A stretch of DNA of 44,488 bases, from positions 1 through 44,488 of IMG/VR virus record IMGVR_UViG_3300033153_014439. One strand, given 5' to 3'. Position numbers and translations under genes: made by a program. The DNA is from a virus. How positions within the stretch are numbered: position 1 is the first letter of the stretch; every line of letters begins with the position of its first letter. The notes under the pieces were generated by a model. That model worked only from the letters and a program-made list of their open reading frames with translations. It did not search any database and was not told the origin of the DNA. Of the stretch, positions 85-44,488 are shown piece after piece.

Positions 85-738
85 TCACGCCTCCTTGCGG
101 TAATCATGCGCAATACGGGCTGAATCGCGCATGATAGCGATCTTGGCCGAATCGTACATGCGTTCGACGCGAGCCGAATCGCGCATGGTACTGACGCAGG
201 CCGAATCGTACATGGCCTCGATGTGGGTCCAACCGTACATGACGTCGATGTGGGCCGAATCGCACATGCCTTCGACGCGGGCCGAACCGCGCATGATCTT
301 GATGCGGGCCGACTCATACATGCTTTCGACATGGGCCGAATCGTGCATGGCCTCTACGCGGGCCGAATCGCACATGGTGCCGACGTGGGCCGAATCGCGC
401 GTGATAGCGATGTGGGTCGAATTGCGCATGATGTGGATGCGGGCCGAATCGCGCATGGTGCCGATGTAGGCCGAACCGTACATGGCGTTGATGCAGGCCG
501 AATCGTGCATGGCACCGACGCGGGCCGAATCGTACATGCTTTCGACGTGGGCCGAATCGCGCATGGTGCCGATGCGGGCCGAACCGCGCATGGCCTTGAT
601 GCGCGCTGAGCCATACATGCCGATAATGCGGGCGTTGACCGCACATTCTATTTCCGCGCCGTCCGCCAGAATCCAGGGGCCTCCGCCGAGTATCTTGCGC
701 TTGTCCGAGATGATGCAGTGGCTGACGCGTTCGGCCAT
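85..738 (-). CDS. Nonapeptide-repeat protein A, probable beta-solenoid
   Basis: This is a 217-residue protein. After about 40 unique residues (MAERVSHCIISDKRKILGGG then PWILADGAE) it consists of about 19 tandem 9-residue units of the pattern M-[YRHC]-[DGEN]-S-A-[RHCY]-[IV]-x-x, encoded by 27-bp units. It ends in a short tail DYRKEA. A 9-residue period with an alternating small and branched SA-x-I/V core suggests an 18-residue-per-turn beta-roll or solenoid; that is inference. There is no signal peptide, membrane segment or catalytic motif. It overlaps the 3' end of the preceding gene (648-953), and the next gene starts two bases after its stop. A second, frameshifted copy lies at 43799-44488. 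Because 27 is a multiple of 3 and the units lack stops, other frames are also open; this frame is chosen for its unique N-terminus and start and for the matching copy B. Confidence 0.85.
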   Translation of the reverse strand: MAERVSHCIISDKRKILGGGPWILADGAEIECAVNARIIGMYGSARIKAMRGSARIGTMRDSAHVESMYDSARVGAMHDSACINAMYGSAYIGTMRDSARIHIMRNSTHIAITRDSAHVGTMCDSARVEAMHDSAHVESMYESARIKIMRGSARVEGMCDSAHIDVMYGWTHIEAMYDSACVSTMRDSARVERMYDSAKIAIMRDSARIAHDYRKEA

Positions 739-2608: not shown

Positions 2609-3637
2609 CTATGTTTTTTCAAAAAGTTGGCGCCACGCCGGTTTTGCACGTAACCGGGCGTCCGTCAAGCCGCCGCGGGGCATGACCGGCCAGACCGCCG
2701 CGTCGGTCAGCGTCCAGAACGTGATGCTGGTAGCGGCGGGATGGGCGCGGACGATTGCCAGCATGTCGCGATAGGCGAGAGCCTGGGCGGTTTCCGTCCA
2801 TGTTCCGAACGGCGCCAGGCCGAGCGTGGCACGCTCCCATTCCCGGCGATTACCGATGATGACCGGGCTGCCGTCACTGCGGAAGATATTTTCGGTGATG
2901 TGCGCCTGCAAGCCGGCGGCCTCGATTTCGTACAGCGTGCGTTCGACCTCTTCGCGCGTGTACCATCGGTGCCCGTGCGCCTGAACGCCTATCGTGTCTG
3001 CGCCGACAGCGCGTGCGTAATCGACAAGCGCACCCAAACAGCATCTGTCCGACTGGCCTTGTGGCGAATGGATTACGTCCCATTCGTTCACGGCGATTGC
3101 CGCGCCTGGCGTCAGTTCGCGCGCCGCTGCCACCATTTCGGCCACCAGCGTCGCCGGCTGCGCGAAATGAATCGGCTCATTCACTATATCCCAGGCGTAG
3201 GCTATATCGCCGAATTCGCGTGCGAGTTCTTCCACGTAGCCCACGGCCTTGTCACGCGGCGTTGCGCCCTGGGGGACACCCCAAAGCGGCGTGTGCAGGC
3301 GCAGCCGCTTGCGATACTCGCGGCAGTAGTTGGCTATGGCGTGCGCGTCGGCGGGGTTCGCATTGTAGTCGCGCCATTTAAGCGCATTACAGGGCGTAAT
3401 AGTATCGAACGCCAAAAGTCGCGGCCAAAGTGCGGGAAAAAGGTCGGTGCGGGATGGTGACGGGCACCCGCAGCCGATGAGCGTCTGGCCCGGGCGCGCC
3501 TGCTCGCGCAGGAGCGCCAGGGCCTCGGTATCAAGAGCCAGCGGATGCGCAGGGGGCGCATGGCGAGGCCACAGTCGCCCAAGTGCCCCCGCGCCGCATG
3601 CCGCAGCGCCGGTTGCCAGAAATTCGCGACGGTTCAT
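2609..3637 (-). CDS. GH10 family glycoside hydrolase (endo-xylanase-like) with Tat signal
   Basis: This is a 342-residue protein. Residues 1-20 (MNRREFLATGAAACGAGALG) form a twin-arginine signal, so the enzyme should be exported folded to the periplasm or beyond. The rest is a TIM barrel with GH10 hallmarks in order: NALKW (84-88, compare NEMKW), RLHTPLWG (113-120), the acid/base motif WDIVNEP (149-155, Glu154), IGVQAHGH (216-223), the nucleophile region ITENIF (247-252, Glu249, normally ITELD) and TFWTLTDAAVW (306-316). GH10 enzymes hydrolyse beta-1,4-xylan by a retaining mechanism. Length fits a single catalytic domain. Start ATG 3637 overlaps the upstream stop as ATGA. Such an enzyme is unusual in a phage leftward operon; substrate is inferred from family only and might be a host or environmental polysaccharide. 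Confidence 0.85.
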   Translation of the reverse strand: MNRREFLATGAAACGAGALGRLWPRHAPPAHPLALDTEALALLREQARPGQTLIGCGCPSPSRTDLFPALWPRLLAFDTITPCNALKWRDYNANPADAHAIANYCREYRKRLRLHTPLWGVPQGATPRDKAVGYVEELAREFGDIAYAWDIVNEPIHFAQPATLVAEMVAAARELTPGAAIAVNEWDVIHSPQGQSDRCCLGALVDYARAVGADTIGVQAHGHRWYTREEVERTLYEIEAAGLQAHITENIFRSDGSPVIIGNRREWERATLGLAPFGTWTETAQALAYRDMLAIVRAHPAATSITFWTLTDAAVWPVMPRGGLTDARLRAKPAWRQLFEKT

Positions 3638-3828
3638 GGTGCAAGCCCCTTGTGCTGTTGCCACTGCCGAAACGCGCCAGCCATGTACATATCGACCTGG
3701 CGTTTGCTATAGCCGATCTGGCGAAGTTTGATGGCGAATTCAGCCATTGTCGGCCGGTTGCCGTGCCTGTCCATCGGCCCTGGGCTGCCATAGAAGAGTT
3801 CAATGGTCGTGGGTTGTCGCGTCCCCAT
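3634..3828 (-). CDS. Unknown 64-aa protein upstream of the GH10 gene
   Basis: ATG 3828 has a GGGAGG site. The sequence MGTRQPTTIELFYGSPGPMD is followed by a helical region ending in a basic tail; YSKRQVDMYMAGAFRQW suggests a short helix pair. The stop overlaps the GH10 start (ATGA), so the two are probably coupled. No family recognised. Confidence 0.6.
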   Translation of the reverse strand: MGTRQPTTIELFYGSPGPMDRHGNRPTMAEFAIKLRQIGYSKRQVDMYMAGAFRQWQQHKGLAP

Positions 3829-5816: not shown

Positions 5817-5870
5817 ATGAATTTATGGGGTGAATACCGAGCCGCCGAGCGACATGGGCAACGCGGATGA
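5817..5870 (+). CDS. Short leader peptide coupled to the trigger-factor-like gene
   Basis: ATG 5817 follows the best ribosome site in the area (AAGGGAGCGGCG). It encodes 17 residues (MNLWGEYRAAERHGQRG) and its stop overlaps the next ATG as ATGA. The downstream gene itself lacks a good ribosome site, so translation may depend on this leader. Confidence 0.45.
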   Translation: MNLWGEYRAAERHGQRG

Positions 5871-6427
5871 GTTGGAAGGTTAAGCGCATCAACCCCTGCC
5901 GCGTGCGCCTGGAAGTCGAGGTCGAGGCTTGGGAGGTAAACGCGGCCTTTGACGACATGGTGAAGCATCTGCGCAAAACGCGCCATATTGACGGCTGGCG
6001 CGACCGAAAACGGCCCCATCGCGCCCCGCGAGGACATCATGGCGGTGTGCAGGCGCCTGCCGATTTCATCGAAAAGCGCTACGAGTGGGAAATCAAGGAG
6101 ACGCTCTGGCATCATCTGACCGCGACTCACTTCGAGCGGGCCTCGCGCCTGTCGGGCAACCTGCCGGTGCCATGCACCAAGCCCGACTTTCACTTGCCGA
6201 TAGGTGTCCTGCCCCGCCGCGATACGGCGTGGTGCTTTGCGGCGGAATACTACATCTATCCGGTGCCGTCGGCACTTGACCCGCGCTCTTTCCGGATGCC
6301 GCATTTTTACGACAACGAACCGATTGCGCCGACACTGGACGCCTATCATGGACTTTCTATTGCTCATCGGGATGACCCTGGGCGGGTTTGCGGTGGGCTG
6401 GTGCCTGAAGGGGCTCCTGCAATCTGA
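5867..6427 (+). CDS. Trigger factor N-terminal domain-like chaperone
   Basis: The 186-residue product aligns along most of its length with the ribosome-binding N-domain of bacterial trigger factor: a beta strand VRLEVEVEAWEVNAAFDD, helix, then the signature region HIDGWRDRKRP (trigger factor: I-x-G-F-R-x-G-K-x-P), a helix FIEKRYEWEIKETLWHHL (trigger factor QRYGxxVRxDVLxxL) and a final strand WCFAAEYYIYPVP. Differences are an extra loop of about 15 residues after the signature and loss of the PPIase and C-terminal arms. The signature loop docks on ribosomal protein L23 in the bacterial protein, so this version may act at the ribosome on nascent capsid proteins. It is followed closely by a GroES-like gene. 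The last 25 residues overlap the next gene and are uncertain. Confidence 0.7.
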   Translation: MSWKVKRINPCRVRLEVEVEAWEVNAAFDDMVKHLRKTRHIDGWRDRKRPHRAPRGHHGGVQAPADFIEKRYEWEIKETLWHHLTATHFERASRLSGNLPVPCTKPDFHLPIGVLPRRDTAWCFAAEYYIYPVPSALDPRSFRMPHFYDNEPIAPTLDAYHGLSIAHRDDPGRVCGGLVPEGAPAI

Positions 6428-6503
6428 CTACGAATGGACGCACCTGCGGGATGACCTGCGGGACGAAATCCGGCGACTCCATGATGACCTTGCGCAACGG
6501 TGA
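6348..6503 (+). CDS. Small membrane protein with charged helical tail (51 aa)
   Basis: ATG 6348. An N-terminal hydrophobic segment (MDFLLLIGMTLGGFAVGWCL) is followed by an acidic/basic amphipathic helix (TLRDDLRDEIRR-like). Predicted one-span inner-membrane protein with a cytoplasmic helix. It overlaps both neighbours (80 and 23 bp). Function unknown. Confidence 0.5.
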   Translation: MDFLLLIGMTLGGFAVGWCLKGLLQSDYEWTHLRDDLRDEIRRLHDDLAQR

Positions 6504-6777
6504 TAAATGCCGCAAATGCGGGCGATGTTGCTATTTTATGACCGTCATCGACGGGCAATTGGTGCGCACGAACGTCCCATGCCCGTACCTGGACGCCGAA
6601 ACGCACTTGTGCACGATTTTCAAAGACCGATTTTGGGTGAATCCGCGCTGTTTGACCCTATCGCAGGCCATTGCGCAACGGGTCTTGCCCGCGGATTGCC
6701 CGTATGTGGCCGATTTGGACTGGTATAAGCCGCCGATGGAATGGGAGGAGCACGAGAATGGGCGAAAAAACGGCTGA
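6481..6777 (+). CDS. CxxCxxCC zinc/iron-chelating family protein
   Basis: ATG 6481 gives 98 residues. The metal motif is CRKCGRCCYF near the N-terminus, followed by CPYLDAETHLCTIF, PRCLTLSQAIAQ and ADCPYV, the usual cysteine order of the YkgJ/CxxCxxCC domain family. The family binds Zn or Fe-S; its biochemical role is poorly known. It overlaps the start of the GroES-like gene by 20 bp and could belong with the chaperone genes only by position. Confidence 0.7.
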   Translation: MMTLRNGDKCRKCGRCCYFMTVIDGQLVRTNVPCPYLDAETHLCTIFKDRFWVNPRCLTLSQAIAQRVLPADCPYVADLDWYKPPMEWEEHENGRKNG

Positions 6778-7072
6778 TTGCGTCTATATACCGGTGAATC
6801 GCGCCGTCATCGTCGAGGACATCGAGCGCAAAGACCGCCGGACGGAGACCGGCATCGTCATTCCGGACACTTCGCGCCACAGGCGGTACCAGGAGGGCCG
6901 TGTCATTGCCGTTTCGCCGAATTTGCGCACGCGAGACGATTTGCCCATTCGTGTCGGGATGGTCGTCGGGTCGCTGGTGAACCACGGTGACGTGTTTTAC
7001 GACGACAATGGGCGCGTTTTGCGCAGGCTTTCGGTCGATTCGATTCATGTCGTGCGCGTGGAGGACAGGTGA
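6758..7072 (+). CDS. GroES-like co-chaperonin
   Basis: This is a 104-residue protein, close to the usual Cpn10 length. It has the Cpn10 beginning (VYIPVNRAVIVEDIERKDRR, compare RPLxDRVxVK), the mobile-loop region TETGIVIPD that contacts GroEL, a following turn YQEGRVIAVSP, and the late strands VGSLVNH and SVDSIHVV. A phage co-chaperonin would replace host GroES on host GroEL to enlarge or re-tune the folding chamber for the capsid protein, as T4 gp31 does; that role is inference. It follows a trigger-factor-like gene, overlaps the gene before, and its stop overlaps the next start (TGATG). Confidence 0.8.
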   Translation: MGEKTADCVYIPVNRAVIVEDIERKDRRTETGIVIPDTSRHRRYQEGRVIAVSPNLRTRDDLPIRVGMVVGSLVNHGDVFYDDNGRVLRRLSVDSIHVVRVEDR

Positions 7073-7425
7073 TGATACTCACGCTCTGGATTCTTGGCTG
7101 TATGGGCTTTTCAGCAATCATGCTGATACTCGGCGCGTTCTGCGGCTTTCTCTACTTCGGGCGCGGGTCATGGCGGGAATGGCTCGACCGCGAATTGCGC
7201 CCGCGTTCGATACCGTACCTGACGTCCGTGTACAAGGAACTCGTCGAAGAAGGCGTGTTGACCGACGAGCAGGTGCAGAAAATCGCCGAGCGACTGTGGA
7301 CGAAGGCCGTGCAGGAAGCGTATCGCGCCGAATTCGAGGAAGCCCAGCGGACGATGGCCCTTACCGAGGGGCGCAGCCGCGAGCAGGAAGACATAGCGAA
7401 TATACGGAAGGCACTTGCGCTATAA
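7072..7425 (+). CDS. Membrane-anchored protein with helical tail (117 aa)
   Basis: ATG 7072 overlaps the GroES-like stop. Residues 1-30 form a hydrophobic helix (ILTLWILGCMGFSAIMLILG). The remainder is charged and helical (YLTSVYKELVEEGVLTDEQV) with a segment resembling SHOCT-type C-terminal helices. Likely inner-membrane protein exposing a cytoplasmic coiled region. No family assigned. Confidence 0.6.
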   Translation: MILTLWILGCMGFSAIMLILGAFCGFLYFGRGSWREWLDRELRPRSIPYLTSVYKELVEEGVLTDEQVQKIAERLWTKAVQEAYRAEFEEAQRTMALTEGRSREQEDIANIRKALAL

Positions 7426-7493: not shown

Positions 7494-7613
7494 ATGCCAG
7501 CCCACGTTCTCGACAAGCGCCGGCCAGACCACGATGCGTATTGGGCTGAGCGCCGGCGCGGTATCTACAAGCCCGCGAGCGAGTATGGCCCCACCCAAAC
7601 GCAATCCGGTTAA
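7494..7613 (+). CDS. Possible 39-aa protein before terminase small subunit
   Basis: ATG 7494 to TAA 7613, overlapping the next gene by 29 bp. The sequence MPAHVLDKRRPDHDAYWAER then RRGIYKPASEYG has normal composition. There is no strong ribosome site. It may be a real small protein or a leader; no family recognised. Confidence 0.35.
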   Translation: MPAHVLDKRRPDHDAYWAERRRGIYKPASEYGPTQTQSG

Positions 7614-7938
7614 GCACTATTACCCTTACCTCAAGCACCTGCGCCAACTTTGCGAGGAGTTCGGCGTGGACCGCAAGAAACAATCCCCCTCTATTGTTTG
7701 GATGCTCGTTGACTGTCTTGCGCAACAGTACGCCATGCTCGACTACGCCATGAACTTTATCGTCGGCGAGCCGGGTACGCGCAGGGAAGCGGAGGCGTAC
7801 TGCGCGAAACTCCACACCAAAATCCAGCGAACGATAAGCCAACTTGAGCGATACCGCCCCGAAAACACTGAAACCCCCAGCACGCAAAACGCCTACCAAA
7901 AGGCGGCGGCCCGCTTCGTCCAGGAAGCGCAAGGCTAA
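7585..7938 (+). CDS. Putative terminase small subunit
   Basis: This is a 117-residue helical protein (MAPPKRNPVKHYYPYLKHLR then QLCEEFGVDRKKQSPS) directly upstream of, and overlapping by 95 bp, the large terminase gene. Size, helical content and position fit a DNA-recognition small subunit that loads the packaging motor. There is no clear homology signature, so the call rests mainly on synteny; an unrelated head protein is possible. Confidence 0.5.
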   Translation: MAPPKRNPVKHYYPYLKHLRQLCEEFGVDRKKQSPSIVWMLVDCLAQQYAMLDYAMNFIVGEPGTRREAEAYCAKLHTKIQRTISQLERYRPENTETPSTQNAYQKAAARFVQEAQG

Positions 7939-9757
7939 ACGCCGAAAACGCCCCGGTCCCGAAAATCCCCACCTCACGTACTGGGGCGTCAAGCATGCCA
8001 GCAAATCCTATGACGAACTGACCCCGGAAGAGCGTGTGGAGTGCTGGTTTCATTTCCCGTCGTTCTGCCACTTTTTTCTCAAAATCTGGACGAAGCCTGA
8101 TGCGAACAACGAGCGGCGGCTCGTTCCGCTCGATTGGAACTATGCGCAACGCACCTTCTGGCCGAAGCGCAAGCATCGCAATTGGCACCTCAAGTCGCGA
8201 CAGGTCGGTTGGACGACCATCGAACTGGCCGAGGATTTCTGGATTGCCGTAACGCGCCCCGGCTCCAACGTGCAGGTGCTAACGCACTCGAAGGAACTGA
8301 CCGAGGATATGCGCCTGCGCATCCGCACCTTCATCGACCACCTGCCCGACGAGTTCGCGCTGGAAGTCACGAAGGACAACCGGGACGGTTTCGAGTTCAA
8401 GGGGGTACCCGGAATCGGTCTCGCGCTGAGAAGCCGTATCGGGCTGCAGACGGTTTCGGGTAAGCATAAGGGTATCGGCAAGACCCTCTCGAAACTGCAC
8501 ATGACCGAGGTCGCGCGCTGGGATAATGTCACCGGCGGCGTCGGGCACTACATCGCCACGGCGATCCAGGCGCTTCCGAAAACCGTGCCGGTCACGATTG
8601 AGACGACCCCAAACGGCCTCGGCCACCCGTCGTACCAATTGTGGGTCAAGGCGGAGTCGGGGGAGAGCGGTTTTGAACCCATCTTCATGCCGTGGTGGTA
8701 TGACGAGACCGCGGTCGCGGAGGTCGATGACGACTTCGCGGTGAAGGACGATAAGGAGGCGTGGCTCCTCAAGCAGGGCGCGACGCCGGGACATATCGCC
8801 TTCCGCCGCCTGTCTATCCGGGAAATGGCCTCGCGGCAGTACCCCGGTGAGGTCATCTTCAACCAGGAATACCCCTCCGACCCGCGCACGTGTTTCATCG
8901 CGGGCGGGCGCAGTGCGTTTCCCGCCGACCGGCTCGTCGAGCAGGAAGAGCATATCGACGTGGAACTGGCGCAGTGGCGCGCTGAAGGCCGCCGTTTCCC
9001 GCGTCAAGGGCGGCTGTACATGTCCGTGGACGGCATGCCGCTTTTCAACGAGTTGCCCGGTGGCGCGCTCACGCTATGGGAGTTGCCGCGCCCCGGTATG
9101 TCCTACATCATCGGCGCGGATGTCGGCAAGGGGCTTCCCACCGGCGATTTCTCGGCGGCCGAGGTGCTGTGCGCGGAGAGCCACGAGCAGGTCGGGGAAC
9201 TTCACGAGCGCGTGCCGCCCAAGGAATTCGCATACCACCTGAACCTCCTCGGCAGGATGTACAATGAGGCGCTCCTGGCCGTCGAGCGCAACGACGTTGG
9301 CTTCAACGTCGTCGAGGAACTGTACGAGGAACTGGTTTACCCGAACCTCTACACGGCCAAGAAGACCCAAAAGGGCTACACGGAAGATTCCTACTCTTAC
9401 GGCTGGCACTCGAACGCCACCACTCGCCCCATAGCCATCGCGGAAACCGCCGACCTGCTGTGGCAGCGAAGTATCCGTATCCGTTCCAAGGCGCTCATCG
9501 AGGAATTGCTCGCCTTTGTCGAGGACGAGAACGGCAAGTACCAGGCCCCGAAGGGCGCGTTTGACGACCTTGCGATGGCGTTTGTCATCGCTTGCTGGGT
9601 GATGACGCATGAGGCCGCCGTCCTACAGGCACCCTGGGTCGAAGGCGAAGAGCCGTGGGAAATCGAACGCATCAAGCAGGTCCTACAGCGCCAGCAGGCC
9701 GGCGAAGACATTTGGCAGGAGGACATTGACCCCGCCGTGGAGATGTTTCTGAGATGA
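7844..9757 (+). CDS. terL: Terminase large subunit
   Basis: This is a 637-residue DNA-packaging ATPase-nuclease. A very basic N-terminus is followed by the adenine/Walker A region HLKSRQVGWT (residues 115-124, a deviant P-loop typical of large terminases), Walker B LHMTEVARW (218-226, Glu222), and the coupling motif ETTPNG (253-258). The C-terminal RNase H-like nuclease has GADVGKG (424-430, Asp426), ERND (481-484) and FDDLAMA (573-579). It pumps DNA through the portal and cuts headfuls or ends. The start is TTG 7844; no ATG precedes the ATPase domain in frame, so a non-ATG start is needed. The stop overlaps the portal start (ATGA). Confidence 0.95.
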   Translation: MSDTAPKTLKPPARKTPTKRRRPASSRKRKAKRRKRPGPENPHLTYWGVKHASKSYDELTPEERVECWFHFPSFCHFFLKIWTKPDANNERRLVPLDWNYAQRTFWPKRKHRNWHLKSRQVGWTTIELAEDFWIAVTRPGSNVQVLTHSKELTEDMRLRIRTFIDHLPDEFALEVTKDNRDGFEFKGVPGIGLALRSRIGLQTVSGKHKGIGKTLSKLHMTEVARWDNVTGGVGHYIATAIQALPKTVPVTIETTPNGLGHPSYQLWVKAESGESGFEPIFMPWWYDETAVAEVDDDFAVKDDKEAWLLKQGATPGHIAFRRLSIREMASRQYPGEVIFNQEYPSDPRTCFIAGGRSAFPADRLVEQEEHIDVELAQWRAEGRRFPRQGRLYMSVDGMPLFNELPGGALTLWELPRPGMSYIIGADVGKGLPTGDFSAAEVLCAESHEQVGELHERVPPKEFAYHLNLLGRMYNEALLAVERNDVGFNVVEELYEELVYPNLYTAKKTQKGYTEDSYSYGWHSNATTRPIAIAETADLLWQRSIRIRSKALIEELLAFVEDENGKYQAPKGAFDDLAMAFVIACWVMTHEAAVLQAPWVEGEEPWEIERIKQVLQRQQAGEDIWQEDIDPAVEMFLR

Positions 9758-11640: not shown

Positions 11641-11721
11641 CCCCATGACCACCCGCTGCGGAATCCGAACAACCGGCCGGACTCGGACGACCCTCAGGCG
11701 GAGTCAGGAGGTGCAACGTGA
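11641..11721 (+). other. In-frame extension of the portal gene after TAA
   Basis: Directly after the portal TAA the same frame continues PHDHPLRNPNNRPDSDDPQA then ESGGAT and stops at TGA 11721. The scaffold start GTG 11718 overlaps that TGA, matching the junction style of this genome. The stop is followed by C, a context known to be leaky. This is either a nonsense mutation, a sequencing error (CAA to TAA), or a readthrough extension. Confidence 0.55.
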
Positions 11722-12587
11722 GTGAAGAGACACAGGGTGAAGGGCAACTCGTTGAGGTGGAACTCGTCACCGGCGAAAAGGTGAAAGTCGCACCGGAACA
11801 CGCGGAAACCGTCAAGGCCCACGCATTCCGACAAGCGGACTACACCCGCAAGACCCAGCAATTGGCGCAAGAGCGGCAGCAACTCGCGGAAGAGAAGGCT
11901 CGGCTCGCAGACGTGCAGGCAAGACTCAACATCATCGACCGGAATCCGGGCCTGAAAGCACAATTCGAGCAGGCCTTCCGGAATCCGTGGACACCTGTCG
12001 CACCGCAAACCAGCGGCGAGGACGACCCGTTCGGCGCACCCGCGCAGGACGACGCACTCGCCAAGAAGATTGCCCAACTCGAAGGCTATGTCGGCAATCT
12101 CAGCCAACAGTTGACCGAGGAGAAACGGCAATCCATGCGGTTTGCGTTGCAGGCGGAACTGAGCAACCAGTTCGGAACGAAGCCTTATGTGGATATGGAG
12201 CAATGCCTTGTCTATGCTGAGGCGAATCCCGGGCTGTGGCACATGTCCGCCGACAAGATGGCGAAGGCCATCGTGACGCAACTCTACGCCGACGCATACG
12301 CTGAGGATTTGCGTAACGAGGGACGCGCTGAAATCCAGCGCGAACTTGAGAAACAACGCCAGGAAGAGGCGGAACAAGAACGCCTCGCGGCGAACACTCC
12401 ATCACAGATGACCATGCCCGACGGTGAAGTCATCCCGCCGGTTACGGAAATCCTGCGCTTGCAGAACGGGAGCGAGGAAGACCGGCGCAAGGCACGTGCT
12501 TACCTTGAGCGCATCGACGCCCTCGAAAAGGCGGCGGGCGAAGCGCGGGAAGCGCAATTGCGGAGGATGGCCATCGGCTCTGTGTAA
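11718..12587 (+). CDS. Scaffolding protein
   Basis: 289 residues, highly charged and largely coiled-coil (QADYTRKTQQLAQERQQLAE then EKARLADVQAR), ending in a basic helix. It lies between portal and major capsid protein, where tailed phages place the scaffold that guides procapsid assembly. Start GTG 11718 with a CAGGAGGTG site 5 nt upstream. No protease motif seen. Confidence 0.8.
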   Translation: MSEETQGEGQLVEVELVTGEKVKVAPEHAETVKAHAFRQADYTRKTQQLAQERQQLAEEKARLADVQARLNIIDRNPGLKAQFEQAFRNPWTPVAPQTSGEDDPFGAPAQDDALAKKIAQLEGYVGNLSQQLTEEKRQSMRFALQAELSNQFGTKPYVDMEQCLVYAEANPGLWHMSADKMAKAIVTQLYADAYAEDLRNEGRAEIQRELEKQRQEEAEQERLAANTPSQMTMPDGEVIPPVTEILRLQNGSEEDRRKARAYLERIDALEKAAGEAREAQLRRMAIGSV

Positions 12588-12604: not shown

Positions 12605-13900
12605 ATGGCACTTTCCGACCTTGCGTTCCTTAGTCATGGCGCAGCGAGCGTTTCCGCGAACTACGCTATGGCATGGGCGCGGGAACTGCTCTTCGATGCC
12701 GAGGCGCAGACGTTTTTTGTCGCGCAGGATTCGGCGACGCTCGGGCGGCCGGGCGGACAGCAGTACGGCCAGGCCGCCGTCGTCAATTTTACCCGCGACA
12801 TAAAGCGTATCCGCGGCGACAGCGTGCAGATAAACCAGGTCGGCAACCTCAAGGGCAGGCCGACTTCAGGCGTACTGCGCGGCAACGAAGAGAACATTGC
12901 GTACAACTACATGACCATCGCGACCACGCGCAAGCGTAAGGCGATTGGTTATGAACGGTACGCCCAGGAGAAGTCGTTCTGGGATTGGCGCGCCACGGGG
13001 CGGAAGTTGCTCGCCCAGTGGCTTGCCCGTCAGCAGGACAAGCAGGTCTTTGACGCCATGATAAGCGGTACCAGCGTGATTTACGCCAACAGCGTAGACT
13101 CCCCCGCGTCCGCCTCTGTCATGGGCATGGCTTCGGGCGGCCTTGTCGTCAGCGATCTGTCGAAAGCCGGGAAGATTTTCACCGCACGCAACGCCAAGCC
13201 GCTTGGCTTCGGCGGGCGTGACGGTGTGCAGATTCCGGGCTATGCGGTAGTAATGCCTCCCGACCAGTATGCCGATGTGATGGACGAGACGTCCATGAAG
13301 TCGGCGTTTCAACTGGCCTGGGAACCGGGCGCGAACCACCCGTTGCGTCACGGCGCCATGACCAGGTACAAAAATCTCTGGATTTTCCAACTTGGCGGCG
13401 ACCTGTGGACGGGTGGCAGCCCGTTGCAGCCGCGTTGCAAACTGTACACGGACTGCAGCACCTCGACCGGCGTAGGCACGATTTTCGTCTCGACGTCGGG
13501 TTCGGCGGCTGCGCCCACGCAGTACTTCCCGTCCAGCGGGTACTTGCTGATGTATGACCCGGGCGGATCGAAGTACGAGCGTATCCACTACACGGCCAAG
13601 GACGATTACTCTTTTACCCTGACCTCCAAACGTGCGGCAGCCACACGCACCTCACACACCGCCGCGACGACCATCGTGGCGTACGAGATAGCACGTGTTG
13701 TCGCGTTTGGCGCGGAGGTCGTGGCGAAGGTGTCGCTTGTTGACCCGATGTGGATTTACGAAGACCAGGACTACCGGGAAAGGCTGGGCATGGGTCTCCG
13801 GTGGATAGACGGTTTCAAGAAAATCGACGATACGCTGGACAAAACGCCCGGCATCCTGGTCTTCGGCGCATGCCACGACAGAACAATCGAGATTATCTAA
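12605..13900 (+). CDS. Major capsid protein (N4 gp56 / DUF4043-like, HK97 fold)
   Basis: This is a 431-residue protein with a GGAGTCTAAAGG leader. The N-terminal half shows the conserved pattern of the Phage_capsid_3/N4-gp56 family: INQVGNLKGRPTSGVLRGNE at about residues 78-97, then a helix with KAIGYERYAQEKSFWDWRA and AQWLARQQDKQVFDAMISG. Around residues 280-365 a Thr/Ser-rich beta segment appears inserted in the fold. The C-terminus (DPMWIYEDQDYRERLGMGLR) is typical of the P-domain end. It builds the icosahedral shell. A UUCG hairpin follows the stop. Confidence 0.88.
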   Translation: MALSDLAFLSHGAASVSANYAMAWARELLFDAEAQTFFVAQDSATLGRPGGQQYGQAAVVNFTRDIKRIRGDSVQINQVGNLKGRPTSGVLRGNEENIAYNYMTIATTRKRKAIGYERYAQEKSFWDWRATGRKLLAQWLARQQDKQVFDAMISGTSVIYANSVDSPASASVMGMASGGLVVSDLSKAGKIFTARNAKPLGFGGRDGVQIPGYAVVMPPDQYADVMDETSMKSAFQLAWEPGANHPLRHGAMTRYKNLWIFQLGGDLWTGGSPLQPRCKLYTDCSTSTGVGTIFVSTSGSAAAPTQYFPSSGYLLMYDPGGSKYERIHYTAKDDYSFTLTSKRAAATRTSHTAATTIVAYEIARVVAFGAEVVAKVSLVDPMWIYEDQDYRERLGMGLRWIDGFKKIDDTLDKTPGILVFGACHDRTIEII

Positions 13901-32278: not shown

Positions 32279-32539
32279 ATGCGCCCCCCCGACGGCTGGC
32301 AGGCCGTCGGGCTGACGCCACCGCCGACCAATGAAACTGTGCCAAGTCGCACAGTTAGGCGGCGGGGCGTTTCTTGGGGCCGTGGGATAATCAAAGCGGG
32401 CGGTTGTGACGCTTACCCGCCATCGCGTATATCGCGAAAACCAAATAGCGCCCCGGCAGTAACGCACTGCCGGCAACCCACGGCCCCGCAATTTATCAGG
32501 CGACAGCACCCTGCGAAACAACAGGGAGGAACAGCATGA
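32279..32539 (+). CDS. Doubtful 86-aa frame before the SDR gene
   Basis: ATG 32279 to TGA 32539, overlapping the next start as ATGA. The start reads MRPPDGWQAVGLTPPPTNET, plausible at first, but the rest is Arg/Pro-rich and the stretch is dominated by perfect hairpins. Either a small gene or untranslated leader. Confidence 0.3.
   Translation: MRPPDGWQAVGLTPPPTNETVPSRTVRRRGVSWGRGIIKAGGCDAYPPSRISRKPNSAPAVTHCRQPTAPQFIRRQHPAKQQGGTA
32288..32473 (+). other. Cluster of three perfect hairpins upstream of the SDR gene
   Basis: CCCGACGGC-TGGCAG-GCCGTCGGG (32288-32311), AACTGTGC-CAAGTC-GCACAGTT (32335-32356) and CCGGCAGT-AACGC-ACTGCCGG (32453-32473) occur in the 298-nt gap 32238-32535. Such density suggests a structured leader RNA, an attenuator or a small RNA. 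None has a T-run. Confidence 0.45.
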
Positions 32540-33411
32540 GCATCTACACCGATGCCACAATCCTCGTGACCGGCGGCACCGGCTCGATAGGTTCGCGTGT
32601 CGTCGCGGAACTCCTCAAGCACGCGCCGCGTGCAATCCGCATACTCTCCCGTAACGAGGAAAAGCAGTTCTGGATGCGCCGCAAGTACCTGGGCCGCACC
32701 CTGCGCTTCCTCATCGGCGACATCCGCGACCGCGACCGCCTATCCGACGCCATGCACGGTGTGGATTACGTCTTTCACTGCGCGGCCATGAAGCACGTGG
32801 ACATGTGCCAGTACAACCCGCAGGAGGCCAACAAGACCAACGTGGACGGCACGATGAACGTCCTGCGCGCCGCCACGCACGCCGGCGTCAAGCGACTGGT
32901 GCATCTCTCCACCGACAAGATCGTCCAGCCGAACTGCGTGATGGCGGCCACGAAACTCGCCGCAGAGCAAACGGTGCTTGCCCACAATCGCTGGCAGGAC
33001 AGGCCCGTGTGTATCGTGGCGCGGATGGGCAATGTCTTGTATTCGAGCGGGTCGCTTGCGCAAATCATTTGCCGTTGCGTACGCCTCGGGAAGCGGTACA
33101 CCTTGACCGACCCTGACATGCGGCGCTACTTCATCAGCGGTGAGGACGCTGCGCGGTGGTTATTGTGCGCGCTCATGGGGGGCGACGCGGGGGATATTTG
33201 GATTCCCCGCATGACGGAATGGCGTATCGGTGACCTTGCGCCGCGCATCGCCCGCCAATGTGCCGCCGCCTACAAGGTGCGCTACAAGTACGCGGACGAT
33301 TACTTGGTTATCGGCGCAAGGCCGTGGGAAAACATGCGCGAGGAACTCTGGACTGCGCACGAGGCCGTGCGATTGCGGGATGTGGACGGGGGTTGGGTGA
33401 TTCCGCTGTAA
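32536..33411 (+). CDS. UDP-sugar 4,6-dehydratase/epimerase-like SDR (PseB/CapD family)
   Basis: 291 residues behind GGGAGGAACAGC. An NAD(P)-binding Rossmann motif TGGTGSIG (12-19) is followed by GDIRDRD (61-67), CAAMKHVDMCQYNPQEA (82-98), TNVDGTMNV (101-109) and the catalytic segment LSTDKIVQPNCVMAATK (124-140). This is the polysaccharide-biosynthesis PF02719 group that includes PseB, which starts pseudaminic acid synthesis from UDP-GlcNAc. The usual Y-x-x-x-K has Met136 for Tyr, as in some CapD/WbpM-type members. It may feed a sugar to the Maf-like enzyme at 13973-15421. It is the last rightward gene. Confidence 0.8.
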   Translation: MSIYTDATILVTGGTGSIGSRVVAELLKHAPRAIRILSRNEEKQFWMRRKYLGRTLRFLIGDIRDRDRLSDAMHGVDYVFHCAAMKHVDMCQYNPQEANKTNVDGTMNVLRAATHAGVKRLVHLSTDKIVQPNCVMAATKLAAEQTVLAHNRWQDRPVCIVARMGNVLYSSGSLAQIICRCVRLGKRYTLTDPDMRRYFISGEDAARWLLCALMGGDAGDIWIPRMTEWRIGDLAPRIARQCAAAYKVRYKYADDYLVIGARPWENMREELWTAHEAVRLRDVDGGWVIPL

Positions 33412-35946: not shown

Positions 35947-36062
35947 TATTCGCTTTCCTGGATAAAGATGGTCGAAAGTTCGTCGTGGACGAACAAACCG
36001 GAAAGAGAATCTACGAGAAAGACGGCAAGCCGCGTCAATTTATAACGTTCGATGCATGCCAT
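35946..36062 (-). CDS. Small 38-aa protein upstream of rusA
   Basis: ATG 36062 or 36065 overlaps the upstream stop, and its TAA overlaps the RusA start (TAATG). It reads MACIERYKLTRLAVFLVDSL then SGLFVHDELSTIFIQESE. A compact hydrophobic-acidic peptide; no family recognised. Both couplings support it. Confidence 0.5.
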   Translation of the reverse strand: MACIERYKLTRLAVFLVDSLSGLFVHDELSTIFIQESE

Positions 36063-36832
36063 CATGCGCCTCCTTTCGGCCATTCCCGTATACCCGCGAA
36101 TTCCGGGAAATGCGCGACAACGTTGTCCTTCACAAATACCGCCACACCCGCCTCACGCGCCTGCGATACCGCGTCCGCAATCCATGCGCGCTCTGGCACA
36201 ACCTTGTCCCTGCGGTTGCCCGTCTCGGCACCGATGATGAGCCAGTTGATGAGGTCCCCGACATTGGTCGTCAGGCTGTGCCGCGTTGTACCCAAAAACC
36301 CAAACTCCACCGGGCCGTGCGCGGGTTCGTAGGACACGAATCGCACCGGCGCATTGCATTCCAGCAATGCCAGCATGCGCTCGTCGGCGTCCCCCTGATT
36401 CGTAACCGATACGCCAAGCCAGGCGTTCGGTATGGAATCACCGCGGAGGAGATATGGCCGCTCCGCCTCAATATCAACCCCGCGCTCGCCCCATAACGTG
36501 TCGTACATTAGGTCGGGCCGTTTGGTCAGTACCATGAAGGTGTGCCAGGGCGTGACCGCAATCTGCGCGACAACGCATAGCGTCGCTTCGACGGGTAATG
36601 CGGGGTCGAATAGTTCCCCCATCGAACACACGAATATCTTTGCCGGTGTCTTGCGCTGGAAGGGTTGGTCAAGTCGTTCCAGGTGCAAGTGCGGTTTGAA
36701 GCGATAACATTGCGTGCAGCGCTGCCTCATCCGCTTGGCCTGGCGCCGCGCATAGCACCATTCGCAGCCGCGTGAACAGCCCACGACAGGGTTCCAGGTG
36801 AAATCGCACCATTCGATTGGCGTCCTATTCAT
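36062..36832 (-). CDS. DUF5131 / phage Gp37-Gp68 family protein
   Basis: 256 residues from ATG 36832 (GTG 36838 possible). The family pattern is clear: TPIEWCDFTWNPVVGCSRGC, EWCYAR, FVCSMGELFDP, PNAWLGVSVTNQGDADERM, RFVSYEP and WLIIGAETG. The clustered cysteines (C-S-R-G-C-E-W-C-Y) resemble a radical-SAM-like iron-sulfur site and the fold is a TIM barrel. Biochemical role is not established; it is widespread in phages and mobile elements. Confidence 0.85.
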   Translation of the reverse strand: MNRTPIEWCDFTWNPVVGCSRGCEWCYARRQAKRMRQRCTQCYRFKPHLHLERLDQPFQRKTPAKIFVCSMGELFDPALPVEATLCVVAQIAVTPWHTFMVLTKRPDLMYDTLWGERGVDIEAERPYLLRGDSIPNAWLGVSVTNQGDADERMLALLECNAPVRFVSYEPAHGPVEFGFLGTTRHSLTTNVGDLINWLIIGAETGNRRDKVVPERAWIADAVSQAREAGVAVFVKDNVVAHFPEFAGIREWPKGGA

Positions 36833-36866
36833 CTCCACGCACCTCTTTTTTGATAAAACGCCCCAT
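36825..36866 (-). pseudogene. Remnant copy of the 37310-37720 gene start
   Basis: A ribosome site plus seven codons MGRFIKK, identical to the start of the gene at 37720, followed by six unrelated codons and TAG. The 33-bp identity (36846-36878 and 37700-37732) shows a recombination scar. It may still be translated as a 13-aa leader into the DUF5131 gene. Confidence 0.6.
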
Positions 36867-39321: not shown

Positions 39322-39378
39322 TCACCGTCCTGTCGCGCAGAGAGCAGATTCTGCGTTCGGTCCCTTCGGCCAGGTCAT
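39322..39378 (-). CDS. Possible 18-aa peptide
   Basis: ATG 39378 overlaps the upstream stop as ATGA; reads MTWPKGPNAESALCATGR and ends directly before another ATG. Supported only by junction style. Confidence 0.25.
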   Translation of the reverse strand: MTWPKGPNAESALCATGR

Positions 39379-39881
39379 TTCCGCCTCGCCCGCAAGGAAT
39401 CGCCCTCGTCAAGGGACTCTCCCCGTGCGTCGCGGATTTCCTTGAGGGCCGCAATGAGTTCGGCGTGATTGTCGAACCAGTGGATGATACGCCGCATAAG
39501 GCCCCCCGGTTCGCCCTTTGCCCAGAGTCCGAGAACGATATTCCCTGCGCCCCACGCGATGCCGACCTCGGTCCAGGCGTCCGTTCCCGACGGCGAGATG
39601 TACACCGTCACCGGGCATGTCGCGGCCGCCGATGTGTCGTACTCGAATTTTTCGCGCCCCTGCTCGCCCCAAACCCATTCGTCGAAATCCATCTTTTTGG
39701 AGCGGACATTATGCTCCTCGGACCCTGCGTTCTCGATAAAGGAAAGCACCGTAAGTCCCTCGGCCCGGAGCCTTTCGGTGAGCATCCTAACGGCATGCTC
39801 ATTTCTCCACGAACTCGCGATATAGACCCTCATCGAGTATTTGTTCTCGCCGTCGTAACCAACCTTCATCACTTCCATCAT
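39375..39881 (-). CDS. Nucleoside 2-deoxyribosyltransferase-like protein
   Basis: 168 residues. The domain opens MRVYIASSWRNEHAVRMLTE (Rossmann-like strand and helix), then MDFDEWVWGEQG, SAAATCPVTVYISPSGTDAW and TEVGIAWGAGNIVLGLWAKG. In this fold the late E of T-E-V-G-I-A is the usual catalytic glutamate. Such phage proteins are predicted to cleave N-glycosidic bonds of nucleotides or act on NAD-like molecules; the substrate is unknown. ATG 39881 has AAGGAG; an inner ATG 39833 may be the family start. Confidence 0.75.
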   Translation of the reverse strand: MMEVMKVGYDGENKYSMRVYIASSWRNEHAVRMLTERLRAEGLTVLSFIENAGSEEHNVRSKKMDFDEWVWGEQGREKFEYDTSAAATCPVTVYISPSGTDAWTEVGIAWGAGNIVLGLWAKGEPGGLMRRIIHWFDNHAELIAALKEIRDARGESLDEGDSLRARRK

Positions 39882-43060: not shown

Positions 43061-43802
43061 TTTCATGCTCCTTTTCGTATCGTTCGTAAAGCCGGAGAAT
43101 CGTCTGATAATACTTGCGGCCGAAGGCTTCGCGTTCATGTGAGCACCGAAGGCGCCATGTGTTGTACTGTGGCGGCCGCGTCGATACACAAATCCATTCA
43201 AATGGCAAATACTTACCCGTGACCGCCGCAACGTTGTCGATGTAGAAGGCGGCGCGGGCGGCATAGTTGTATTGGACGATGCTGTCGATAAACTCGTCGC
43301 GGTCGATGCAGTGAGTGGTTTTGAGGTCGATAATTACGTCGTCGCACAGTATATCAAGGCGCGCTTTCGTCAGGGTGTGGTAACCCTCTACTTGGGTTCT
43401 AATGCATACTTCACGCTTTGAGGGGCGGCCCAACGCTTTGCGGATATCCTCGCACGCCATGATGCTCTTGTACATGGCGACGACTTCCGCCCATTCGGTC
43501 GGCTTGATGGGCTGTTTGCCCGTCTTGGCGGCTACTTGCGCGACAGCCTCGCGGCCTTCGCGCATGCGCAAATCGTAATTCGCGTCGAGTTTGACGTAGC
43601 GGGCGGCGGTGGCGTCCTTGCCCTCCAGCACCAAGCAGTGCAGGACGGAGGGTACTAGGCCCCGGCGTCCGAGGTTTTTGGGCTTGCCGCGCACCCAGGC
43701 CTCGAGGTCGGAAAACGACAGTGCGTCGCTGGCTTGGTATGCGTCGAAGGGTAGCCCCTCGTAAATCCCGGGCGTATTTTGGGTTGTTGTCGCAGTCGTC
43801 AT
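43053..43802 (-). CDS. RecE/exodeoxyribonuclease VIII-like exonuclease (PD-(D/E)XK)
   Basis: 249 residues. GIYEGLPFDAYQASDALSFS is the usual RecE-domain start. The LHCLVLE helix (54-60) follows, and the catalytic signature LTKARLDILCDDVIIDLKTT gives D150 and D159-x-K161. A late Q/Y-x-x-Q helix (DSIVQYNYAARAAFYI) completes the core. It resects DNA to make 3' single strands for ERF. ATG 43802 overlaps the repeat gene's stop. Confidence 0.88.
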   Translation of the reverse strand: MTTATTTQNTPGIYEGLPFDAYQASDALSFSDLEAWVRGKPKNLGRRGLVPSVLHCLVLEGKDATAARYVKLDANYDLRMREGREAVAQVAAKTGKQPIKPTEWAEVVAMYKSIMACEDIRKALGRPSKREVCIRTQVEGYHTLTKARLDILCDDVIIDLKTTHCIDRDEFIDSIVQYNYAARAAFYIDNVAAVTGKYLPFEWICVSTRPPQYNTWRLRCSHEREAFGRKYYQTILRLYERYEKEHENE

Positions 43803-44488
43803 GCGCCCTGCCCCGCGGAGAGGGCCGAATCGTGCATGGTTTCGACGCCAACTGAATCGCGCATGATAGCGATCTCGGCCGAATCGTGCATGGTGCCGAT
43901 GCGGGCCGAATCGCGCATGGTACCGATGCGGGCCGAATCGCACATCCTTTCGACGTGAGCCGAATGGTGCATGGTATCAACGCGAGTCGATTCGTACATG
44001 ACACCGATGTGGGTCCAACCGTACATGCTTTCGACATGGGCCGAATCGTGCATGGCCTCTACGCCGGCTGAATGGTGCATGGCATCGACGCGGGCCGAAC
44101 CGTGCATGAGCCTGATGCGGGCCGACTCATACATGCCTTCGACGCGAGCCGAATCGTACATGCTTTCGATGCAGGCCGACTCGTGCATGGTGCCGATGTA
44201 GACCGAATCCCACATGGTACCGACGCAGGCCGAATCGCGCATGTGCCGATGCGGGCCGAATCGCGCATGGTGCCGATGTGGGCCGAACCGTACATGCTTT
44301 CGACGTGGGCCGAATCGTGCATGGCACCGACGCTGGCCGAGCCGCACATGGCCTTGATGCGGGCTGAACCGTACATACCGATAATGCGGGCATTGATCGC
44401 GTATTTCACCTCCGCGCCGTCCGCCAGAATCCAGGGGCCTCCGCCGAGTATCTTGCGCTTGTCCGAGATGATGCAGTGGCTGACGCGT
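43799..44488 (-). pseudogene. Nonapeptide-repeat protein B, frameshifted and cut by the window edge
   Basis: Second copy of the repeat gene: about 21 units of M-[YRHCW]-[DGEH]-S-A-x-[IV]-x-x. The N-terminus (RVSHCIISDKRKILGGGPWI) is identical in sequence to copy A at the edge. One G is missing at 44243-44244 (ATGTGCC for ATGGTGCC), so the downstream 15 units are in another frame than the upstream part. The stop at 43799 overlaps the exonuclease start. It may be a real phase-off state, a pseudogene or a sequencing slip. Confidence 0.75.

What the first reader, a model, noticed from the sequence alone, without database searches (positions are those of the whole stretch)
5817..7072. Virus-encoded trigger factor N-domain next to a GroES homologue
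A truncated trigger factor and a Cpn10 homologue open the late block just ahead of terminase and capsid genes. Phage GroES analogues are known (T4 gp31), but pairing with a trigger-factor ribosome-binding domain suggests a complete folding route from ribosome to chaperonin for virion proteins.
Basis: partly seen in the sequence, partly recalled or inferred. Interest (0 to 1): 0.8.

Follow-up and report, generated by a model that had tools for sequence, protein, structure and literature searches.

The report
Phage trigger-factor domain with GroES
An unnamed bacterial virus carries, just before its capsid genes, a small protein made only of the ribosome-docking domain of a bacterial folding helper, and close by a lid protein for the host's GroEL folding chamber; the pairing is real but rare, and the part that should touch the ribosome is altered, so its job is unproven.

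Summary
ORF 5867-6427 is a stand-alone trigger-factor N-domain (Pfam Trigger_N, E 1.1e-9, 39.1 bits, cut-off 22.2); its model's best PDB matches are all trigger-factor N-domains. ORF 6758-7072 is a Cpn10/GroES (E 2e-8) with a GroEL-binding-type mobile-loop motif (TGIVIP). Both lie in one tightly overlapping operon ahead of terminase, portal and capsid genes. They are not adjacent: a small membrane protein and a YcgN-like cysteine-cluster protein lie between.

The Cpn10 probably works like T4 gp31 on host GroEL. The trigger-factor piece lacks the isomerase and substrate-cradle domains. Its ribosome signature GFRxGxxP reads GWRDRKRP and is followed by a ~14-residue insertion in the docking loop, where the codon signal sits in another frame. 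No GroEL is on the contig, and 0 of 50 terminase relatives carry either gene, so a complete folding route is not shown.

Viral trigger factors are not unique: four jumbo-phage-like contigs encode full-length ones (one with a GroES too), a Mu-like phage has a second stand-alone tip beside its head genes, and PHROG 26774 is an unlabelled trigger factor. New variant of a known kind; interest about 0.5.

The parts
5817..5870 (+). 17-aa leader ORF (MNLWGEYRAAERHGQRG) with a GGGAG ribosome-binding box; its TGA overlaps the ATG of the trigger-factor gene, suggesting translational coupling
   Evidence: sequence; inference for coupling
5867..6427 (+). stand-alone trigger-factor N-domain protein, 186 aa; domain covers about residues 1-132; the last ~26 residues overlap the next ORF and may not be meaningful
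   Evidence: PF05697 E 1.1e-9; Foldseek ranks 1-11 trigger factor, VIA-align Z 8.2 to E. coli TF N-domain; codon signal in frame except 6003-6062
5993..6016 (+). degenerate ribosome-signature GWRDRKRP (canonical GFRxGxxP), residues 43-50 of the ORF
   Evidence: alignments; motif definition from PMC11559001
6017..6058 (+). about 14-residue insertion in the docking loop; codon signal lies in another frame here (two compensating frame changes, natural or from sequencing/assembly)
   Evidence: leaving these residues out of the comparison raises the profile score from 29.1 to 40.7 bits; frame analysis; GC3 0.53
6348..6503 (+). 51-aa (or 43-aa from 6372) predicted single-membrane-span protein
   Evidence: translation; codon signal; no family match over cut-off
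6484..6777 (+). YcgN-like cysteine-cluster protein (CxxCxxCC, putative metal binding), 97 aa
   Evidence: PF03692 23.3 bits, cut-off 23; YcgN model E 3e-14, below its equivalog cut-off
6758..7072 (+). Cpn10/GroES co-chaperonin, 104 aa, mobile-loop motif TGIVIP, roof hairpin about 4 residues shorter than E. coli GroES by eye
   Evidence: PF00166 E 2.1e-8; phrog_3188 E 3.7e-7; PDB GroES chains
7072..7425 (+). 117-aa membrane-anchored, coiled-coil-like protein, overlaps the Cpn10 stop
   Evidence: no family match over cut-off
7585..7938 (+). 117-aa protein in the position of a small terminase (function inferred from position only)
   Evidence: no Pfam match
7844..9757 (+). terminase large subunit (true start probably later than 7844)
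   Evidence: phrog_2 E 1.3e-17; tblastn to phage terminases
9754..11640 (+). portal protein
   Evidence: phrog_156 E 2.6e-20
11718..12587 (+). scaffold-like protein
   Evidence: phrog_3927 E 2.6e-5
12605..13900 (+). major capsid protein
   Evidence: phrog_334 E 7.4e-18, PF13252

Best explanation
The phage carries a small chaperone operon at the start of its virion block. The Cpn10 most likely caps host GroEL in place of, or alongside, host GroES to fold a virion protein, as T4 gp31 does (inferred from homology and the mobile-loop motif). The stand-alone trigger-factor N-domain most likely acts as a small nascent-chain helper: a docking or holding module without cradle or isomerase, working at or near the tunnel exit on newly made phage proteins and sharing that site with host trigger factor (inferred, with reservations because the docking motif is altered). 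Shown: domain identities, operon layout, missing domains, altered loop. Not shown: ribosome binding, GroEL binding, any hand-over between the two.
For: Trigger_N E 1.1e-9 and Cpn10 E 2.1e-8; the model matches only trigger-factor N-domains at the top, though the alignment given to the model held trigger factors; overlapping starts and stops from 5817 to 7425; GC3 of both genes about 0.74-0.76 outside the insert, like the phage's own genes at 0.76-0.79, so they look like settled phage genes and not a fresh contaminant; a second stand-alone trigger-factor tip lies beside the head genes of a Mu-like phage; a 267-kb viral contig has both a trigger factor over the NCBIfam equivalog cut-off and a Cpn10; host trigger factor is needed by phage chi, over 95% loss of plating without it (PMC10399903); gp31 precedent (PMC6318259).
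Against: Ribosome signature degenerate and interrupted; no substrate cradle; no relative of either protein found by sequence in the viral contigs, nor of the trigger-factor ORF in bacterial genomes, so conservation cannot be tested; 0 of 50 terminase relatives carry either family; frame disturbance inside the gene.
Confidence: 0.45

Rival explanations
1. Fold kept, ribosome site lost: the N-domain was captured from a host tig gene and re-used as an off-ribosome assembly or holding chaperone for one virion protein, so it no longer docks at L23.
For: F to W and G to R changes in GFRxGxxP and a loop insertion, while the sheet and helices keep their match; place immediately ahead of head genes; the N-domain itself has holding activity according to PMC11559001.
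Against: The Arg and Lys of the loop (positions 45 and 48) are kept; the insert's sequence is uncertain because of the frame problem, so the true loop may look more canonical.
Confidence: 0.27
2. A decaying remnant: a captured tig gene that has lost its other domains and is drifting, with frame changes, and no longer does anything.
For: Two compensating frame changes in codon signal, altered motif, no detectable relatives.
Against: The frame stays open over 186 codons, codon bias is strong on both sides, the start is coupled to a leader ORF, and small phage genomes rarely keep dead genes inside a tight operon.
Confidence: 0.15
3. Host take-over factor: the isolated docking domain blocks the tunnel-exit site against host trigger factor or other exit-site factors, lowering host protein synthesis during infection.
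For: Overproduced N-terminal-complete trigger factor is detrimental in E. coli and removing the N-domain relieves it (PMC11559001); bacteria with several homologues almost always keep only one with the N-domain, the reverse of what this phage keeps.
Against: Needs ribosome binding, which the altered motif makes doubtful; sits with late genes, not with early take-over genes.
Confidence: 0.08
4. Assembly or contamination artefact: a piece of bacterial tig misjoined into a phage contig.
For: Records labelled phage do carry host tig by contamination, and the frame is disturbed inside the gene.
Against: The piece lies inside an overlapping phage operon with phage-like GC3, has no clpP/clpX neighbours, and its identity to known trigger factors is low (23% or less).
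Confidence: 0.05

Closest known systems
Bacterial trigger factor (Tig; PF05697-PF00254-PF05698, TIGR00115)
   Same: N-domain fold and order of elements (two strands, helix, docking loop, long helix, strands); profile and structure match
   Different: No isomerase, no cradle domain; signature GWRDRKRP instead of GFRxGxxP; loop insertion; 18.2 bits against the TIGR00115 cut-off of 180.2
Full-length trigger factors of jumbo-phage-like contigs (L019, L020, L032, L034; phrog_26774)
   Same: virus-encoded trigger factor; one record also has a Cpn10
   Different: full three-domain proteins, canonical signature, near DNA polymerase III and nuclease genes and not near head genes
Stand-alone trigger-factor tip of a Mu-like phage (L021:7935-8219)
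   Same: truncated N-domain without the other domains, placed between portal/MuF and the following head genes
   Different: only the helix-loop-helix part (profile 18-75), canonical GFRKGKVP, extra CxxC stretch at its start, no Cpn10 on the record
T4 gp31 and phage GroES families (phrog_3188; GroES is a core gene of HTVC023P-type pelagiphages, PMC9599517)
   Same: phage Cpn10 near or for head protein folding; GroEL-binding-type loop
   Different: clearly a Cpn10 by sequence (gp31 is only 14% identical to GroES, PMC6318259); roof shorter but not absent by eye; function not tested

Membership tests
Trigger factor (Tig) | N-domain homologous to PF05697 | tested here: met
   39.1 bits over cut-off 22.2; Foldseek and VIA-align top rows
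Trigger factor (Tig) | Ribosome-binding signature GFRxGxxP | tested here: not met
   GWRDRKRP, then ~14 inserted residues; caveat: frame disturbance at 6003-6062
Trigger factor (Tig) | FKBP-type isomerase domain | tested here: not met
   no PF00254 match in the record at E 1
Trigger factor (Tig) | C-terminal substrate domain (PF05698) | tested here: not met
   no match in the record at E 1
Trigger factor (Tig) | NCBIfam equivalog TIGR00115 cut-off | tested here: not met
   18.2 bits against 180.2
Trigger factor (Tig) | Binding to L23 at the tunnel exit | not testable with these tools
   needs experiment
Cpn10/GroES | PF00166 over curated cut-off | tested here: met
   34.5 bits, cut-off 21.1
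Cpn10/GroES | Mobile loop with hydrophobic GroEL-binding tripeptide | tested here: met
   TETGIVIPDTS aligns with GGIVL/GGIVLPDT of GroES chains
Cpn10/GroES | Complete beta-barrel including C-terminal strands | tested here: inconclusive
   single-sequence model is all-beta but pLDDT 46; Pfam match ends at profile 62 of 93
Cpn10/GroES | Heptamer that caps GroEL | not testable with these tools
   needs experiment
Phage GroES families (phrog_3188; gp31-type function) | Match to a phage co-chaperonin family | tested here: met
   phrog_3188 E 3.7e-7
Phage trigger-factor family phrog_26774 | Significant match of the window protein | tested here: not met
   E 0.19 over residues 1-53

The most novel reading that the evidence does not exclude
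Phages of unrelated head types (this podophage-like virus, a Mu-like virus) keep miniature trigger-factor docking domains inside their morphogenesis operons as a dedicated kind of virion chaperone; here it works with a phage Cpn10 as a relay that brings nascent capsid or tail chains from the ribosome to host GroEL.
Probability: 0.17. Interest if true: 0.75.

Novelty: new variant of a known kind. Interest (0 to 1): 0.5.

Why it matters
Phage co-chaperonins are well known, but my literature searches found no report of a virus-encoded trigger factor, and one survey says it found none in Southern Ocean viruses (PMC8407431). In bacteria the extra trigger-factor copies almost always lack the N-domain (PMC11559001); here a virus keeps only the N-domain. 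With phage chi needing host trigger factor (PMC10399903), small viral versions would make it directly testable whether phages manage co-translational folding of virion proteins.

Tried and rejected
Single-sequence relatives of the trigger-factor ORF, Cpn10, terminase and capsid in viral contigs: none. Trigger-factor ORF in phage records, plasmids and bacterial genomes: none. Trigger-factor hits in phage records: all fall in UNVERIFIED or unannotated assemblies or in the two Acinetobacter records; the one annotated neighbourhood is host tig-clpP-clpX, so I read them as contamination. Viral-contig hits L011-L018 and most of L023-L041: host-type full-length tig, several followed by clpP/clpX-type genes or at contig ends, discarded. 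Reading the 6003-6062 stretch in its better-coding frame did not improve the trigger-factor profile score (23.4 against 29.1 bits), so the insert is not simply a hidden canonical loop. BFVD fold search: no significant viral match. Cpn10 structure without alignment: too poor to use. Literature on viral trigger factor: nothing direct; the huge-phage paper has no mention in its main text.

Full report
What is there. The window is a whole viral record of 44,488 bases, classed as linear, 61% GC. The + strand from about 5.6 kb to 33 kb is mainly the virion block: terminase, portal, scaffold, Phage_capsid_3-type major capsid protein and further structural genes. The - strand on both sides holds recombination and regulation genes: RusA, Erf-like annealing protein, exonuclease VIII-like, sigma factor. 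So it is a tailed phage, probably podovirus-like by its portal and terminase relatives.

The operon. From 5817 the genes overlap: a 17-aa leader with a good Shine-Dalgarno box (5817-5870), the trigger-factor ORF (5867-6427), a 51-aa membrane-type ORF (6348-6503), a YcgN-type cysteine-cluster ORF (6484-6777), the Cpn10 (6758-7072) and a membrane/coiled-coil ORF (7072-7425).

Trigger-factor identity. Trigger_N E 1.1e-9. A profile I built from 23 trigger-factor N-domains gives 29.1 bits for the ORF as it stands. Leaving residues 51-64 out of the comparison gives 40.7 bits and one alignment through both helices. Most of the unaided score lies in residues 1-48 (25.9 bits); the part from residue 64 alone gives only 4 bits. 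AlphaFold2 with a 10-row alignment (pLDDT 58.5, so modest) gives strand-strand-helix-loop-helix-strand. Foldseek's top 11 PDB rows are all trigger factor (E 1e-4 to 9e-3), and VIA-align ranks seven trigger-factor entries first, Z 8.2 to 5.8, against 4.8 for the next fold. Caveat: the alignment contained trigger factors, which can bias the model; the profile result is independent of that.

The docking loop. In trigger factor the motif GFRxGxxP carries ribosome binding (PMC11559001). Here it reads GWRDRKRP, and about 14 residues follow before the second helix. In this stretch the phage's codon preference points to another frame: 13.2 against -12.4 bits, more reversed than any sampled window of ten confident genes; GC3 falls to 0.53. 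So either the gene has two compensating frame changes or the assembly has two errors. The flanks match trigger factor in the ORF frame, so the domain call does not depend on this; the loop sequence does. Ribosome binding should therefore not be assumed.

What is missing. No Trigger_C, no FKBP and no Cpn60 on the record. The stand-alone domain has no precedent that I could find in the literature held, and no detectable relative in the viral, phage, plasmid or genome collections. Among 50 viral records with related terminases (26-32% identity) none has Trigger_N or Cpn10. Many of those records are short fragments, so this shows that the pair is not a standing part of this terminase group, not that it never occurs there.

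Other viral trigger factors. Profile-guided scans gave mostly host tig genes. Four contigs are different: L019 (267 kb), L020 (74 kb), L032 and L034 have full-length trigger factors in phage-like surroundings with SbcCD-like, Cas4-like or DNA polymerase III-like genes (gene names other than the polymerase are my reading of the translations). The L019 protein passes the NCBIfam equivalog cut-off (208 against 180 bits), and the same record has a Cpn10 about 123 kb away. phrog_26774, listed as unknown function, is a trigger-factor family: E. coli TF N-domain E 4.7e-30, L032 E 4.8e-64. L021, a Mu-like phage (Portal_Mu, MuF), has a 95-aa ORF with only the helix-loop-helix tip, canonical GFRKGKVP, E 4.2e-11, between portal/MuF and the next head genes. 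So two unrelated phages place a truncated trigger-factor domain beside head genes. Two cases are suggestive, not statistics.

Mechanism. For Cpn10 the gp31 precedent is direct: gp31 takes over the role of GroES on GroEL to fold the capsid protein, and it lacks the roof loops (PMC6318259). The window Cpn10 has the loop motif TGIVIP, and by my reading a roof hairpin about four residues shorter than GroES; the automatic alignment does not settle this. For the trigger-factor domain, phage chi loses over 95% of plating without host trigger factor, and its authors suggest folding of phage proteins (PMC10399903); the N-domain is credited with both ribosome-binding and holding roles (PMC11559001). I therefore favour a small nascent-chain helper, with off-ribosome holding as the main rival. 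The relay from ribosome to GroEL is a hypothesis; nothing here shows contact between the two proteins.

Verdict. Observation confirmed; interpretation partly supported; a new variant of a known kind. It is uncommon and testable, but a single orphan case with a disturbed loop.

Noticed in passing
window 2609-3664 (-): Phage-borne glycoside hydrolase family 10 (xylanase-type) gene, PF00331 E 1.7e-19, with a twin-arginine signal just under cut-off; only 22-25% identical hits in the genome collection.
   Followed up: partly
window 85-738 (-) and about 43799-44409 (-): Two related genes made of 27-base (9-aa, like MYDSARVEA) tandem repeats, one at each end of the contig, 78.5% identical over 615 bases; function unknown.
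   Followed up: no
L019:7911-9158, L020:7869-9155, L032:7935-9224, L034:7989-9257: Full-length trigger factors in jumbo-phage-like contigs; the L019 record (267 kb) also has a Cpn10.
   Followed up: partly
L021:7935-8219: Mu-like phage with a 95-aa stand-alone trigger-factor tip just after portal/MuF, beginning with a CxxC stretch.
   Followed up: partly
PHROG 26774: Listed as unknown function but is a trigger-factor family (E. coli TF N-domain E 4.7e-30).
   Followed up: yes
CAKLQH020000005.1 (L006) and several MT83xxxx / OR84xxxx records: Records labelled as phage that carry bacterial tig; L006 has tig-clpP-clpX and is evidently host chromosome.
   Followed up: partly
window 36062-36838 (-): DUF5131 protein with a weak radical-SAM match (E 7.7e-51 and 0.0027), phrog_2045 of unknown function.
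   Followed up: no
window 32536-33411 (+) and 39375-39881 (-): Polysaccharide-biosynthesis nucleotide-sugar epimerase (PF02719 E 4.1e-71) and nucleoside deoxyribosyltransferase-like protein (phrog_12607).
   Followed up: no
window 6484-6777 (+): YcgN-like cysteine-cluster protein lying between the two chaperone genes (E 3e-14); whether it belongs to the chaperone function is unknown.
   Followed up: no
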